Source: Lysobacter sp. CFH 32150 (lineage in GTDB: Bacteria > Pseudomonadota > Gammaproteobacteria > Xanthomonadales > Xanthomonadaceae). From it: DNA of 64,000 nt. The notes beneath the pieces were generated by a model. It had not been told where the DNA came from. It was given only the letters and a program-made list of their open reading frames with translations, and did no database searches. A program made the position numbers and the translations under genes. Position 1 is the first letter of the stretch. The number at the start of each line of letters is the position of its first letter. The stretch covers positions 496,001 through 560,000 of the forward strand of contig NZ_JALDWJ010000001.1 in NCBI RefSeq assembly GCF_022758295.1. Reading direction: 5' to 3'. Shown piece by piece: positions 45,889 through 58,963 of this stretch.

Positions 45889-45975
45889 GCCCGGGTGGCG
45901 GAATTGGTAGACGCACTAGCTTCAGGTGCTAGCGGGGGCAACTTCGTGGAGGTTCGAGTCCTCTCCCGGGCACCA
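45889..45975 (+). tRNA. tRNA-Leu with anticodon CAG
   Basis: 87 nt including an encoded CCA end. The acceptor arms GCCCGGG and CCCGGGC pair. The D-arm has AATTGGTAGACGC. The anticodon stem CTAGC/GCTAG encloses TTCAGGT, giving anticodon CAG (reads CUG). A long class-II variable arm follows, then the T-loop TTCGAGT. A terminator comes 10 bp after the CCA, so it is transcribed alone. Confidence 0.96.
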
Positions 45976-54531: not shown

Positions 54532-56220
54532 TCACGCCAACGCCGCGTTGTGCACACCCGCCACCGCGCGCCCCGAAGGATCGGCCGCATTCGCAAACGC
54601 CGCATCCCACGCGATCGCCGCGGGCGTCGAACACGCGATCGACTTGCCGCCCGGCACCGTGTGCGCGCAGGCATCGCCCGGGAAGAACTGTTCGAAGATG
54701 CGGCGGTAGTAGTACGCCTCCTTGGTCTGCGGCGGGTTGATCGGGAAGCGTTCGGCCGCGGCGGCGAAATCGTGGTCGCTGACGTGCGCTTCGGCGTGCG
54801 CCTTCAGCCCGTCGATCCACCCGTAGCCGACGCCATCGCTGAATTGCTCCTTCTGTCGCCATAGGATCGAGTCCGGCAGATAGCCGACGAACGCCTCGCG
54901 CAATACCGCTTTTTCAATGCGACGCGATCCATCAGGGGCAGTACCCGCCATCTTCGCCTGCGCGTCCATCGCCATCGCCACGTCGAGGAATTCGACGTCG
55001 AGGAACGGGACACGCGGCTCCACGCCCCAAGCCATCATCGCCTTGTTCGCGCGCAGGCAGTCGTAGCTGTGCAGCGCATCGATCTTGCGGATGGTCTCGT
55101 CGTGGAACTCACGCGCGTTCGGTGCCTTGTGGAAGTACAGGTAGCCACCGAAGATCTCGTCGGCGCCCTCGCCCGACAACACCATCTTCACGCCCATGGC
55201 CTTGATCCGCCGCGCCAGCAGGAACATCGGCGTCGATGCGCGGATCGTCGTCACGTCGTACGTTTCGATGTGGCGAATTACCTCCGGCAATGCATCGAGG
55301 CCTTCCTCGAAGGTGTAGTGGAAACCGTGGTGCACGGTGCCGAGCGCTTTTGCAGCGATTTCCGCGGCGGCGAGATCGGGCGAACCATGCAGCCCAATCG
55401 CGAACGAGTGCAGGCGTGGCCACCAGGCTTCGGAATGGTCGTCGTCTTCCACCCGGCGACGGGCGAAGCGCGCGGCGCAGGCGGCGACCAGCGAGGAATC
55501 GAGTCCGCCCGATAACAGGACGCCATAGGGTACGTCGCTCATCAGTTGCCGGTGCACGGCGCTTTCGAGCGCGTCACGCAGCTGTTCCGGTGCGATGGTG
55601 ACGCCCTGTGTCGCCGCGTAATCGCGCCAAGGTTTTTCGTAATAGCGCACCGGTTCGCCGATCTCGCTGTCGAAGTAATGCCCCGGTGGGAACGGCGCGA
55701 TGTCGTCGCAAACGCGCACCAGCGCCTTCATCTCCGATGCGACCCACAACCGGCCATCCGCGTCATGGCCCCAGTACAGCGGACAGACGCCAATGGGGTC
55801 GCGCGCGATCAGGTAGCGACCCTTCGCGGCATCCCACAACGCGAAAGCGAAGATGCCGTTGAGTTTCGCCACGCCGGCGGGGCCGTGCTCGCGATACAGC
55901 GCGTTGATCACTTCGCAATCCGAGCCGGTCAGGAACTCGTAGGGCTGCTGTAGTTCGCGCTCGAGTTCACGGTGGTTGTAGATCTCGCCATTCACTGCCA
56001 GCACCAGATCGCCATCGGACGAGCGCAGCGGCTGCGCGCCGCCGGCGGGATCGACGATGGCGAGGCGCTCATGCACCAGCAGCGCGCGCGGCTCGGCATG
56101 CACGCCGGACCAGTCGGGGCCGCGATGGCGCTGGCGCGCCGACAAGGACAAGGCCAGCGGCCTGAGCGGCGTGAGGTCGGCGCCGGGGCGCAGGTCGTAG
56201 ATGCCGAGGATCGAACACAT
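54532..56220 (-). CDS. asnB: Asparagine synthetase B (glutamine-hydrolysing)
   Basis: Makes asparagine from aspartate, ATP and glutamine. 562 residues (E. coli AsnB 554). Cys2 is the glutaminase nucleophile (MCSILGIYD). RHRGPD, VNGEIYNHREL and SDCEVI mark the glutaminase domain; the synthetase PP-loop is LLSGGLDSSLVA, and SGEGADEIFGGYLYFHKAP follows. The ATG at 56220 is fixed by Cys2. It is preceded by a 5' leader holding a terminator and an Asn-rich reading frame, indicating transcription attenuation by asparagine supply. It lies 287 bp downstream of dapE in the same direction. Confidence 0.96.
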   Translation of the reverse strand: MCSILGIYDLRPGADLTPLRPLALSLSARQRHRGPDWSGVHAEPRALLVHERLAIVDPAGGAQPLRSSDGDLVLAVNGEIYNHRELERELQQPYEFLTGSDCEVINALYREHGPAGVAKLNGIFAFALWDAAKGRYLIARDPIGVCPLYWGHDADGRLWVASEMKALVRVCDDIAPFPPGHYFDSEIGEPVRYYEKPWRDYAATQGVTIAPEQLRDALESAVHRQLMSDVPYGVLLSGGLDSSLVAACAARFARRRVEDDDHSEAWWPRLHSFAIGLHGSPDLAAAEIAAKALGTVHHGFHYTFEEGLDALPEVIRHIETYDVTTIRASTPMFLLARRIKAMGVKMVLSGEGADEIFGGYLYFHKAPNAREFHDETIRKIDALHSYDCLRANKAMMAWGVEPRVPFLDVEFLDVAMAMDAQAKMAGTAPDGSRRIEKAVLREAFVGYLPDSILWRQKEQFSDGVGYGWIDGLKAHAEAHVSDHDFAAAAERFPINPPQTKEAYYYRRIFEQFFPGDACAHTVPGGKSIACSTPAAIAWDAAFANAADPSGRAVAGVHNAALA

Positions 56221-56252: not shown

Positions 56253-56288
56253 AAAACAAAAAGGCCCGCACTTCGCAGTGCAGGCCTT
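56253..56288 (-). terminator. Attenuator terminator in the asnB leader
   Basis: On the minus strand AAGGCC, a one-base mismatch, then GCACT form the 5' arm (56288-56277). After a 4-nt loop, AGTGC and GGCCTT form the 3' arm (56272-56261), followed by TTTGTTTT. It is a complete rho-independent terminator located 32 nt before the asnB ATG and 28 nt after the leader-peptide stop. Confidence 0.88.
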
Positions 56289-56332
56289 GGTGAGCGATGA
56301 GCGTTTGTCTTGCGCGCTAATCGCCGGCCTGC
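56280..56332 (-). promoter_or_regulatory. Predicted antiterminator pairing of the asnB attenuator
   Basis: GCAGGCC at 56332-56326, inside the end of the leader frame, is the exact complement of GGCCTGC at 56286-56280, the 5' arm of the terminator. Pairing would block terminator formation. The segment starts 12 nt after the last Asn codon. It would be exposed when a ribosome stalls early in the Asn run, and covered when a ribosome reaches the stop codon at 56319-56317. Confidence 0.7.
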
Positions 56333-56436
56333 GGAAGGCTGGCGTTATTGCGATTGTTATTCACGACCACGGACGCGCGGCCACGGCCGCTGATAGCGGC
56401 GTTGGCGATGCGGCGGCGGGCGGGAGTGAAGGACAT
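56317..56436 (-). CDS. Asn-rich leader peptide of asnB (predicted attenuation sensor)
   Basis: 39 codons ending in TAG. Residues 23-33 read VVVNNNRNNAS, so five of six consecutive codons are Asn (AAT AAC AAT CGC AAT AAC, 56361-56344); a further Asn is at residue 12. Frequencies this high in a short frame directly ahead of asparagine synthetase, followed by alternative antiterminator and terminator hairpins, match the layout of the his, thr and trp leader peptides. No good Shine-Dalgarno precedes the ATG at 56436. An in-frame ATG at 56484, just after dapE, would add 16 residues. A weak TTGCAG-17-CACTAT promoter would make the transcript start at the ATG itself (leaderless). Predicted from sequence; not recognised as a described leader. 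Confidence 0.75.
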   Translation of the reverse strand: MSFTPARRRIANAAISGRGRASVVVNNNRNNASLPQAGD

Positions 56437-56507
56437 GGGTCGATAGTGCTGGAGGGTTCGTGCTTCTGCAAGCATTGTTTTCATTTGCAACGAACTGCCC
56501 GGCCGGA

Positions 56508-57635
56508 TCAGGCCAGTAGCCGTTCGATCAGGGCCAGGTACAGCCCCGGCAGTGCTTCCAGATCGGCCACGGCGACATGTTCGTTGACCTTGTGGATGCT
56601 GGCGTTGACCGGGCCGACCTCGATGCAATGCGCGCCCAGCGGGGCGATGAAGCGCGCATCCGATGTACCGCCGCCAGTACTTTCTTCCGGCGGACTGCCG
56701 GCGAACTGCGCCAACACCTCGCGCGCGGCGGCGCGCAGTGGGCCTTCCGGCGTATAGAACGGTTCGCCGCCGCGGTGCCAATGGATTGCATAGTCGAGCC
56801 CATGCGCACGGAGCACGGCTTCGCATTCCTGCTTGAGCTGTTCAGGGCGCCAGTTCGGGTTGTAGCGCAGGTTGAACAAGACCTCCAGTTCGCCCGGAAT
56901 CACATTGTTGGCCCCGGTGCCGGCGTGTACGTTGCTGATCTGCAGGCTGGTCGGTGGGAACGATTCGTAACCGTCGTCCCATTGCCGAGCGGCGAGTTCG
57001 GACAGCGCCGGCATGGCCAGGTGGATCGGATTGCGCGCTTTCTCGGGATAGGCGACGTGGCCTTGCACGCCCTGGACTGTCAGCGTCGCCGACAAGGTGC
57101 CGCGGCGACCGATTCGCAACAGGTCACCCAGCGTTTCCTTCGACGACGGCTCGCCGGTGATGCACCAGTCGATGTGCTGGCCGCGCTCGCGGAACAGTTC
57201 GGCAACCCGGCGCACGCCATCGATCCCGTCGCCCTCCTCATCCGAGGTCAGCAGCAAGGCGATCGTGCCGTGATGTTCCGGATGTGACGCAACAAATTGT
57301 TCAAGGGCGACCACAAAGGCGGCAACACTGCCCTTCATATCCGCCGCACCACGTCCATACAGCTTGCCGCTGCGTATCTCCGGCGCGAATGGCTCGCTGG
57401 CCCAAGCCTCGCGCGGACCGGGCGGTACCACGTCGGTATGGCCGAGCAGCACCAGCACCGGACCATCACTGCCGTGGGTGGCCCACAGGTTATCGACATC
57501 GTCAAAGCGCAGATGCTCGCAACGGAAACCTGCGCGCTCCAAACGTTCCGCGATCATTTCCTGGCAACCGGCGTCGTCGGGCGTCACCGACGCGCGGGCA
57601 ATCAACTGCTGCGTGAGTACAAGCACGTCGCTCAT
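56508..57635 (-). CDS. dapE: Succinyl-diaminopimelate desuccinylase
   Basis: Releases LL-diaminopimelate from its N-succinyl form in lysine and peptidoglycan biosynthesis. 375 residues, normal length. Di-zinc site motifs are [19 protein letters not shown], the catalytic Glu in SDEEGDG and the late [12 protein letters not shown]. The ATG overlaps the stop of the ArsC-family gene (ATGA). It is followed by the asnB leader region. Confidence 0.97.
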
Positions 57636-58012
57636 TTCGATCCCCGCTCGTCCTGGGCGCGTATGGCGAAGCGCAGCTTGAAGCTGTTGTCGCTGAAACC
57701 TTGCGTGACCACACCGTCGTCCGTGACCACTACTGGGCGACGAATCAGCTGTGGATATTCCTTCAGCAGCAACTTCCATTCGGCGTCCGAACCCGGCGCC
57801 TTGCGATTGGGGGGCAGCGTGCGCCAGGTGGTCGATGACTTGTTGATCAGCGCGTCCCAGTCGCCCACCTGCTTCGCCCAGCCGGCAAGCGTCTCTGGCG
57901 ATTGCCGCTGGTCGCGGTAGTCGACGAAAGTGTGGGCGACGCCGAAGCGTTCGAGCCACTTGCGCGCTTTCTTGCAGGTATCGCAGTTGTTCAATCCGTA
58001 GAGCGTGGTCAT
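57632..58012 (-). CDS. ArsC-family (YffB-like) reductase
   Basis: 126 residues, thioredoxin-like fold. The active site is [12 protein letters not shown], giving Cys10 and Cys13; relatives such as YffB usually have only the first Cys. LIRRPVVV is the conserved cis-Pro segment. The family is named after arsenate reductase, but YffB members next to dapE are thought to be glutathione-dependent reductases of unknown substrate. Overlaps dapE by four bases, as in E. coli where yffB precedes dapE. dapD lies 66 bp upstream. Confidence 0.9.
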
Positions 58013-58078
58013 GCCGCAAGCTTCCCCGATGCGTCATCCAGCGAAGCTGGAATCCATGCTGATCAAAGCAACCAAAGA

Positions 58079-58963
58079 TTATTCCGCGTGTCCCCGCAAC
58101 AGGTCGTTGATCGAAGTCTTCGCACGGGTCTTGGCATCCACCTGCTTGACGATCACCGCACAGTACAGCGAATGACTGCCATCCTTCGCCGGCAGCGAGC
58201 CGGACACCACGACGCTGCCAGGCGGCACGACGCCATAACTGATCTCGCCGGTCATGCGGTTGTAGATGCGCGTGCTCTGTCCGATGAACACACCCATGCC
58301 GATCACGCTGTGGTGGCCGACGATGACGCCTTCAACGACTTCGGAACGCGCGCCGATGAAGCAATGGTCTTCGATGATCGTCGGCGAAGCCTGCAGTGGT
58401 TCCAGTACGCCACCGATGCCGGCGCCACCGGAGATATGGCAGTGCTTGCCGACCTGCGCGCAGGAACCGACCGTCGCCCAGGTGTCGACCATGGTGCCGG
58501 CGCCGACGTAGGCACCGATGTTGATGAAGCTCGGCGTCAGCACGACGTCCTTGCCGAGATAAGTACCGCGTCGCACCACAGTCCCCGGCAGCACGCGCAC
58601 GCCGAGTTTGCGGAACTTCGATTCATCGAAGTCCGCGAAGCGCAGCGGGATCTTGTCCCAGTACGGCGCCGGATCGGCCTCGATCAACTGCATCTCCTGC
58701 GTGCGGAAATACAGCAGCACCGCCTTCTTCAACCACTCGTTGACCTTCCAGCCGCCCTTGCCGTCCGGCTCGGCGACACGGAATTCGCCGCTCTCCAGGC
58801 CTTCGATCACGCGCTGGACCGACGGCTTCGTCGCCCACTCGATTTCCTCCGGCGTGAGCATGGTGCGTCGTTCCCAGGCGCTCTCGATATGGAACTTGAG
58901 CTCGTCGACGCCCGGTCCTTCTGGTGCCTTGCTCTTCTTCGCGGTGGTCTTGCGTGGGGTCAT
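58079..58963 (-). CDS. dapD: Tetrahydrodipicolinate N-succinyltransferase
   Basis: Succinylates tetrahydrodipicolinate in the lysine/DAP pathway. 294 residues, slightly longer than E. coli DapD (274) because of a basic N-terminal tail [16 protein letters not shown]. The left-handed beta-helix hexapeptides are clear ([20 protein letters not shown] and [11 protein letters not shown]). The ATG overlaps the glnD stop (ATGA), the conserved glnD-dapD coupling; the later dapE step is encoded just downstream. Confidence 0.97.

What the first reader, a model, noticed from the sequence alone, without database searches (positions are those of the whole stretch)
56253..56484. Asparagine-sensing transcription attenuator in front of asnB
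Seen directly on the minus strand: a 39-codon frame with Asn at five of six consecutive codons (56361-56344), a stop at 56319-56317, a GCAGGCC segment at 56332-56326 exactly complementary to GGCCTGC at 56286-56280, and that second segment being the 5' arm of a complete rho-independent terminator (56288-56253), then the asnB ATG at 56220. This is the full set of parts of a ribosome-mediated attenuator: starvation for Asn-tRNA would stall the ribosome at the Asn run, free GCAGGCC, form the antiterminator and let asnB be transcribed. Established attenuators of this type serve his, trp, phe, thr, leu and ilv operons; I am not aware of one for asparagine synthetase, so this may be a new member. The start codon is uncertain (56436, possibly leaderless, or 56484).
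Basis: partly seen in the sequence, partly recalled or inferred. Interest (0 to 1): 0.93.

Follow-up and report, generated by a model that had tools for sequence, protein, structure and literature searches.

The report
Asparagine-sensing switch before asnB
In front of the asparagine-making gene asnB lies a tiny asparagine-rich reading frame followed by a terminator-type hairpin, a layout kept across related bacterial families, and it likely works as a switch that would turn the gene on when asparagine-loaded tRNA runs short.

Summary
The AAY3-NNN-AAY2 pattern occurs once in the 3.5 Mb assembly. An Asn-rich leader frame precedes asnB in 179 of 184 distinct upstream regions. In 169 runs 984 of 1564 codons are Asn (AAC 515, AAT 469) and none is AAA or AAG: the amino acid is under selection, not the letters. 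Alignments support an antiterminator 2:3 that excludes both a 1:2 hairpin and the terminator 3:4; its central pair is G-C in 40 and A-U in 18 of 58 rows, which turns a leader Arg codon into Gln. Weak spots: the synonymous-codon test is weak and fails for the window itself, some covariation controls are not exceeded, nothing was measured. Most likely a ribosome-mediated transcription attenuator sensing Asn-tRNA charging; I found no described Asn attenuator in the searchable literature. New member of a known kind.

The parts
56466..56471 (-). predicted -35 element TTGCAG
   Evidence: Sequence; T at -36/-35 relative to the leader ATG is the strongest upstream signal over 174 leaders (1.40 bits at -35). 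Predicted only; the generic scan found no sigma-70 promoter here.
56443..56448 (-). predicted -10 element CACTAT, 17 bases after the -35 and 6 bases before the leader ATG
   Evidence: sequence; A at -11 in 60%, T at -7 in 59% of 174 leaders. Weak match to TATAAT (recalled consensus).
56317..56436 (-). leader reading frame, 39 codons and stop, most likely start ATG 56436
   Evidence: Asn-rich leader frame in 179 of 184 upstream regions.
56344..56361 (-). control codons AAT AAC AAT CGC AAT AAC (N N N R N N)
56313..56352 (-). 1:2 hairpin (anti-antiterminator); its 5' side holds the last two Asn codons and the codons just after them
   Evidence: -17.1 kcal/mol; 92.0% of cells paired in 58 rows.
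56326..56332 (-). segment 2, GCAGGCC, 5' arm of the antiterminator
56280..56332 (-). antiterminator 2:3 (GCAGGCC/GGCCTGC, GGCGAT 56325-56320/ATCGCT 56298-56293, AGCG 56318-56315/CGCT 56303-56300)
   Evidence: (-26.1 kcal/mol).
56280..56286 (-). segment 3, GGCCTGC, shared by antiterminator and terminator
56253..56288 (-). intrinsic terminator 3:4 with T-rich tail
   Evidence: -21.8 kcal/mol.
54532..56220 (-). asnB, glutamine-hydrolysing asparagine synthase B (562 aa), the gene predicted to be regulated
   Evidence: the only gene above cut-off for TIGR01536 in the assembly.

Best explanation
The leader in front of asnB carries a short frame with five Asn codons in six, alternative hairpins and a terminator-type hairpin, and it is predicted to act as a ribosome-mediated transcription attenuator that likely turns asnB on when Asn-tRNA is poorly charged. 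Predicted course: RNA polymerase starts at or near the A of ATG 56436 and a ribosome begins on the leaderless 5' end (inferred). If charged Asn-tRNA is plentiful, the ribosome reaches the stop at 56319 and covers segment 2 (GCAGGCC, which ends 6 bases before the stop); segment 3 then pairs with segment 4 and transcription ends at about 56253. If charged Asn-tRNA is scarce, the ribosome stalls on the Asn run and masks segment 1, so that the 1:2 hairpin cannot hold; segment 2, which begins 14 bases after the first base of the last Asn codon, stays free and pairs with segment 3; the terminator cannot form and asnB is transcribed. Without any translation 1:2 and 3:4 would form together and terminate (they make up the minimum-energy fold of the whole leader). 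Shown here: the parts, their conservation, covariation and spacing. Inferred: translation, stalling, termination and the response to asparagine.
For: Asn frame in 179 of 184 upstream regions, 169 with at least 4 Asn in 12 codons against 0 of 184 antisense. In 169 runs no AAA or AAG among 1564 codons while AAC and AAT mix (166 of 171 loci use both). Terminator-like hit between the last Asn codon and asnB in 168 of 178 loci, 156 with stem energy of -12 kcal/mol or better. In those 156 the leader tail pairs with the terminator 5' arm at a median -18.1 kcal/mol, against -8.4 and -9.4 for windows further up the leader, -12.4 for its own shuffle and -13.1 reversed; a gapless pairing run (G-U allowed) of 6 or more in 140 of 156, starting a median 14 bases from the last Asn codon and ending 7 before the stop. 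Covariation: 2:3 in 58 rows 84.2% paired against 31.5-39.8% for slid partners, 31 both-sided cells against a shuffle mean of 11.0, column 20-79 G-C 40 and A-U 18 with none unpaired; 3:4 93.1%; 1:2 92.0%; Xanthomonas/Stenotrophomonas type 2:3 85.6%, 3:4 98.2%, 1:2 81.7% against 26-48% slid. Arg codons between two Asn codons in the runs are CGC in 115 of 119 against 1078 of 1635 in asnB, as 1:2 pairing demands. The leader frame is present in 12 of 12 loci with AsnB at least 71% identical and in 0 of 14 with AsnB 63-67%. asnB is the only gene over cut-off for its family and the genome has AsnS.
Against: Nothing was measured. With synonymous codons drawn at random, the native leader tail was in the best 5% in only 58 of 152 loci and the window's own tail was not special (p 0.645): much of segment 2 follows from the peptide and high G+C. 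Native arms beat only 73% of arms swapped in from other loci. For 2:3 two measures do not exceed the column shuffles (pairs changed on both sides 5 against 4.6, further pair types 14 against 15.4; 6 against 4.2 and 17 against 14.6, reached by 66 and 80 of 500), and the structure slid by -1 has as many both-sided changes (7 pairs, 18 cells) as the true one (6, 17), although far fewer cells paired (34.2 against 85.6%). Rows are related, so cells are not independent events. My script found no terminator in 10 of 178 loci (one of them L224, which has no leader) and a weak one in 12 more; in some the T-tract is broken by other letters. In 16 of 156 loci no pairing run reaches 6 bases. The window's -10 is a poor match and one search found no promoter.
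Confidence: 0.92

Rival explanations
1. The hairpin is an ordinary terminator that ends transcription arriving from dapE, and the Asn-rich frame is a chance frame; asnB would have its own unregulated promoter downstream.
For: A terminator between two genes is common (general knowledge); dapE ends at 56508 just upstream.
Against: Frame, Asn codons, spacing and covariation with the leader tail are kept in relatives; a plain terminator has no need of the A-U/G-C switch at column 20-79 inside a codon; the conserved promoter-like signal lies upstream of the leader.
Confidence: 0.03
2. The leader is read as described, but the ribosome acts mainly on translation or Rho-dependent termination of asnB rather than on the intrinsic terminator.
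For: Some leaders have broken T-tracts or weak or missing terminator hits; leader frames acting this way are known in other bacteria (recalled).
Against: A strong stem directly followed by a T-rich tail, covarying and exclusive with the antiterminator, in most of the loci aligned; in the window the asnB ATG lies 32 bases beyond the terminator tail, outside the alternative hairpins.
Confidence: 0.06
3. The leader senses a small molecule or uncharged tRNA directly (riboswitch or T-box).
For: T-boxes control asparagine genes in Gram-positive bacteria (recalled).
Against: No Rfam family except one tRNA elsewhere in the window reaches its gathering score; coding selection for Asn with free third positions is not expected for an aptamer.
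Confidence: 0.01

Closest known systems
Classical ribosome-mediated attenuators of trp, his, thr, leu, ilv and phe operons (recalled; the mechanism is restated in the abstract start of PMC1183508, seen in the listing)
   Same: Short frame rich in the codon of the product amino acid, segments 1-4, terminator with T-tract, biosynthetic gene downstream.
   Different: Control amino acid is asparagine and the target asnB; the leader is predicted to be leaderless; the control codons are interrupted by an Arg codon (nearly always CGC) that seems constrained by pairing.
S. meliloti trpL attenuator RNA (PMC7298713, passages seen)
   Same: The 5' end of the attenuator RNA starts with the ATG of the leader frame: a leaderless leader in a proteobacterium.
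   Different: trp leader before trpE(G); here the leaderless start is predicted from promoter spacing only.
Streptomyces lividans attenuators incl. an Ala leader before alaS called not described before (PMC8079986, passages seen)
   Same: Leader peptides with new amino acid specificities, at least one leaderless.
   Different: Other amino acids, actinobacteria; the words asparagin- and asn do not occur in its main text.
T-box control of asparagine genes in Firmicutes (recalled, not checked)
   Same: Same physiological signal, tRNA-Asn charging.
   Different: T-box RNA binds tRNA directly without translation; no Rfam match here.

Membership tests
Ribosome-mediated transcription attenuator | short frame before a biosynthetic gene with clustered codons for the product amino acid | tested here: met
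Ribosome-mediated transcription attenuator | terminator 3:4 directly followed by a T-tract before the gene | tested here: met
   Window. Relatives: 168 of 178 with a hit, 10 without, 156 strong.
Ribosome-mediated transcription attenuator | antiterminator 2:3 exclusive with the terminator, kept by covariation | tested here: met
   some controls not exceeded; weak by synonymous randomisation.
Ribosome-mediated transcription attenuator | 1:2 hairpin overlapping the control codons | tested here: met
   (Lysobacter and Xanthomonas/Stenotrophomonas types; not counted for the Rhodanobacter/Dyella type).
Ribosome-mediated transcription attenuator | segment 2 free when the ribosome is at the control codons, covered when it is at the stop | tested here: met
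   Spacing only: window 14 bases from the last Asn codon and 6 before the stop; median 14 and 7 over 140 loci; footprint size recalled.
Ribosome-mediated transcription attenuator | leader is translated | not testable with these tools
   Only indirect: coding selection.
Ribosome-mediated transcription attenuator | read-through depends on charging of the cognate tRNA | not testable with these tools
   No expression data held.
Leaderless mRNA | transcription start at the start codon | tested here: inconclusive
   Promoter-like signals at fixed distance to the ATG in 174 leaders; no mapped 5' end; generic promoter scan negative.
T-box or riboswitch | match to a described RNA family | tested here: not met
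   one tRNA elsewhere, nothing at this place.

The most novel reading that the evidence does not exclude
The first asparagine-specific ribosome-mediated attenuator: a leaderless one, old enough to span Xanthomonadaceae and Rhodanobacteraceae-type families, inherited with one AsnB lineage, and possibly arisen more than once (L260 of another family and the Rubrivirga MAG L050 carry look-alikes). Its AAT-rich control codons (48% against 15% in asnB) might also make it read how tRNA-Asn decodes AAU, for example its queuosine state.
Probability: 0.6. Interest if true: 0.72.

Novelty: new member of a known kind. Interest (0 to 1): 0.62.

Why it matters
It would add asparagine to the amino acids sensed by leader-peptide attenuation, explain how a large group of soil, plant-associated and opportunistic bacteria likely control their asparagine synthase through the leader itself, and offer over 150 natural variants of one attenuator in which a codon in the peptide changes together with the RNA pairing. 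It makes leaderless attenuation directly testable with a simple nutrient.

Tried and rejected
Chance frame: rejected. Selection for A-rich letters instead of Asn: rejected, no Lys codon in the runs. T-box or riboswitch: no Rfam match at gathering scores. Upstream start at 56484: disfavoured, since it lies upstream of the predicted -35 and relatives keep an ATG like that at 56436 at a fixed distance from the promoter-like signal (the script took only ATG starts, and 4 of 178 leaders without an in-frame ATG were dropped). Synonymous randomisation (152 of 156 loci, 4 with too short a tail dropped): weak, not significant for the window. Other groups: among 37 loci L045-L081 (mostly other gammaproteobacteria, some MAGs of other phyla) I saw no Asn-run leader by eye except the look-alike L050 (best frame in 350 bases only); of 274 genomes of the class only 4 had a close AsnB, three of them the own genome and family members. 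Literature: ten searches in open-access full text; four of them held no paper. No listed title or abstract start describes an asparagine or asnB attenuator, but lists were capped (25 of 445; 12 of 16), and several listed papers were not opened, among them the three that hold both ribosome-mediated attenuation and asparagine, and PMC9413887. PMC5009743 (one passage seen) concerns tRNA decoding. Word searches in the main texts of PMC2965389 (its only asn hit is in a reference), PMC1262725, PMC1183508 and PMC4833913 found no asparagine. Most subscription papers are not held, among them, I believe, the 2004 survey of proteobacterial attenuators (recalled), so an earlier description cannot be excluded.

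Full report
What is there. On the minus strand between dapE (stop at 56508) and asnB (ATG 56220) the window holds, in order: TTGCAG (56471-56466), 17 bases, CACTAT (56448-56443), six bases, ATG 56436; a frame of 39 codons with N N N R N N at 56361-56344 and a stop at 56319-56317; and a 12-pair hairpin 56288-56261 with the T-rich tail TTTGTTTT. asnB encodes asparagine synthase B, the only gene above cut-off for the asparagine synthase family TIGR01536 in the assembly, which also has AsnS. The run pattern AAYAAYAAYNNNAAYAAY occurs nowhere else in the 3.5 Mb assembly.

Conservation. I collected 192 asnB upstream regions: 43 named loci (L002-L044, the most similar of the 80), 30 (one is the window's own) and 119; the last two make 149 of the 177 family genomes with a match. 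184 are distinct. A sense frame with at least 4 Asn in 12 codons within 350 bases of asnB occurs in 169 of 184, an antisense one in 0 of 184, and in 1 of 552 base shuffles. With at least 3 Asn the count is 178 at 350 bases; I take out L224, whose 3 Asn lie in an unrelated frame, and add L127 and L152, whose leaders appear only when 600 bases are read: 179 of 184. The five without are L224, the cut-off contig L107 (6 bases upstream) and three contigs labelled as other groups (L010, L025, L030).

Order and lineage. Forty further loci were fetched: 38 of the 53 matches outside f1, one f1 genome with a distant AsnB and one of another family of the class. Leader frame, judged by eye: f172 2 of 2, f182 7 of 8, f177 1 of 13 (L260), f179 0 of 12, f174, f175, f180 and f139 0 of 1 each, and f1 0 of 1 (L269, AsnB 64% identical). 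A further 26 family genomes whose places one search had not listed: 12 of 12 with AsnB 71-79% identical have the leader frame (one of them, L299, is a gene in two pieces), 0 of 14 with AsnB 63-67% have it. For these 66 loci only the frame was scored; terminators were looked at in L260, L270 and L232. The element is inherited with one AsnB lineage.

Selection is on asparagine. In 169 runs, 984 of 1564 codons are Asn, 515 AAC and 469 AAT, with no AAA or AAG. The Asn third position is free while the first two are fixed. AAT is over-used against asnB (49 of 320).

Alternative structures. The whole leader folds at -76.8 kcal/mol (z -3.4) with the 1:2 hairpin 56352-56313 plus the terminator; the stretch 56350-56268, which lacks most of the terminator's 3' arm, folds into the antiterminator, GCAGGCC/GGCCTGC extended by GGCGAT/ATCGCT and AGCG/CGCT (-29.4, z -2.1, 7 of 200 shuffles as good). 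Energies of the separate hairpins: 1:2 -17.1, 2:3 -26.1, 3:4 -21.8. On 58 Lysobacter-type rows (alignment A1) 2:3 is paired in 84.2% of cells against 31.5-39.8% for slid partners, 3:4 in 93.1%, 1:2 in 92.0%. The pair at columns 20-79 is G-C in 40 and A-U in 18 rows, never broken; it is the middle base of a codon, so most of these leader peptides end in PRAGD with one and PQAGD with the other. Both states occur among the genomes labelled g19 (L125, L156, L160 against L126, L135, L143), which suggests more than one change. On 56 Xanthomonas/Stenotrophomonas-type rows (A2; of the 57 listed I left L003 out) 2:3 is 85.6%, 3:4 98.2%, and a differently built 1:2, in which CCGCA around the Arg codon of the Asn run pairs with TGCGG of segment 2 (47 to 55 of 55 per pair), is 81.7% overall against 26-48% slid, on 55 distinct regions. 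This fits Arg codons between two Asn codons being CGC in 115 of 119 against 1078 of 1635 in asnB. A1 and A2 hold 114 of the 178 loci; the rest, including the Rhodanobacter/Dyella type, were compared only by pairing energy.

Geometry. In 156 loci with a terminator stem of -12 kcal/mol or better, the leader tail pairs with the terminator arm at a median -18.1 kcal/mol against -8.4 and -9.4 for windows further up the leader, -12.4 for its own shuffle and -13.1 reversed; it beats the near window in 146, the far one in 148 and its own shuffle in 140 of 156. 140 of 156 have a gapless run of at least 6 (G-U allowed), starting a median 14 bases after the first base of the last Asn codon and ending 7 bases before the stop; in the window these are 14 and 6. 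A ribosome stalled on Asn would leave segment 2 free; one at the stop would cover it (footprint sizes recalled).

Start. Aligning 174 of 178 leaders on their ATG alone gives a T peak at -35 (1.40 bits), an A at -11 and T at -7 (0.82, 0.80 bits) and a C at -1 (1.07 bits), with at most 0.24 bits per position from -31 to -17. That looks like a promoter at fixed distance to the start codon, predicting transcription from the ATG itself, hence a leaderless leader. In part of the Lysobacter-type leaders the -10 (CAGGAT) could also be read as a Shine-Dalgarno sequence, and the window's own -10 is weak; the point is inference. A leaderless attenuator leader is known for S. meliloti trpL (PMC7298713, passages).

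Results against. The synonymous randomisation gave p of 0.05 or less in 58 of 152 loci and 0.645 for the window; native arms beat 73% of swapped ones. For 2:3, the number of pairs with both-sided change and of pair types does not clearly exceed column shuffles, a structure slid by -1 has as many both-sided changes, and for 1:2 the percentage paired is only slightly above the shuffles (92.0 against 91.0); the sequences are related. The terminator script failed in 10 of 178 loci and gave weak hits in 12.

Verdict. A ribosome-mediated transcription attenuator for asnB with asparagine as control amino acid, most likely on a leaderless transcript. Ten full-text searches showed me no earlier description, but lists were capped, several listed papers were not opened, and most subscription papers are outside the library. 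It is a new member of a known kind.

Noticed in passing
L050 (Rubrivirga MAG), upstream of asnB at 2215: An Asn-rich frame ending RNLTNANRNPVSRRRRESRRALV followed by a strong terminator-type hairpin before asnB, far outside the family; possibly an independent origin.
   Followed up: partly
   Followed up: partly
leader runs of 169 loci, window 56361-56344: AAT makes up 48% of Asn codons in the runs against 15% in asnB; unexplained, perhaps to keep the run unpaired or to tune decoding by tRNA-Asn.
   Followed up: partly
family genomes: Two kinds of asnB occur in the family: AsnB at least 71% identical with the leader frame, and 63-67% identical without.
   Followed up: yes
L127, L152, L146: In three of the four genomes of genus g25 seen, the leader stop lies 208-422 bases upstream of asnB, so something has been inserted in between.
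   Followed up: no
L010, L025, L030: Contigs labelled Deltaproteobacteria, Rhodococcus and Holophagales carry AsnB 76-80% identical to the window's but no leader within 600 bases; mislabelled contigs or transfer.
   Followed up: no
G100:C1:2421140-2422847 (L298, L299): The asnB of this genome appears as two overlapping pieces in the search; an Asn leader frame precedes it.
   Followed up: no
window 56508-58963, minus strand: dapD (58079-58963) and dapE (56508-58037) precede asnB; the longest dapE frame has about 135 extra codons at its start.
   Followed up: no
window 45889-45972 (+): A tRNA gene is the only Rfam match in the window at gathering scores.
   Followed up: no
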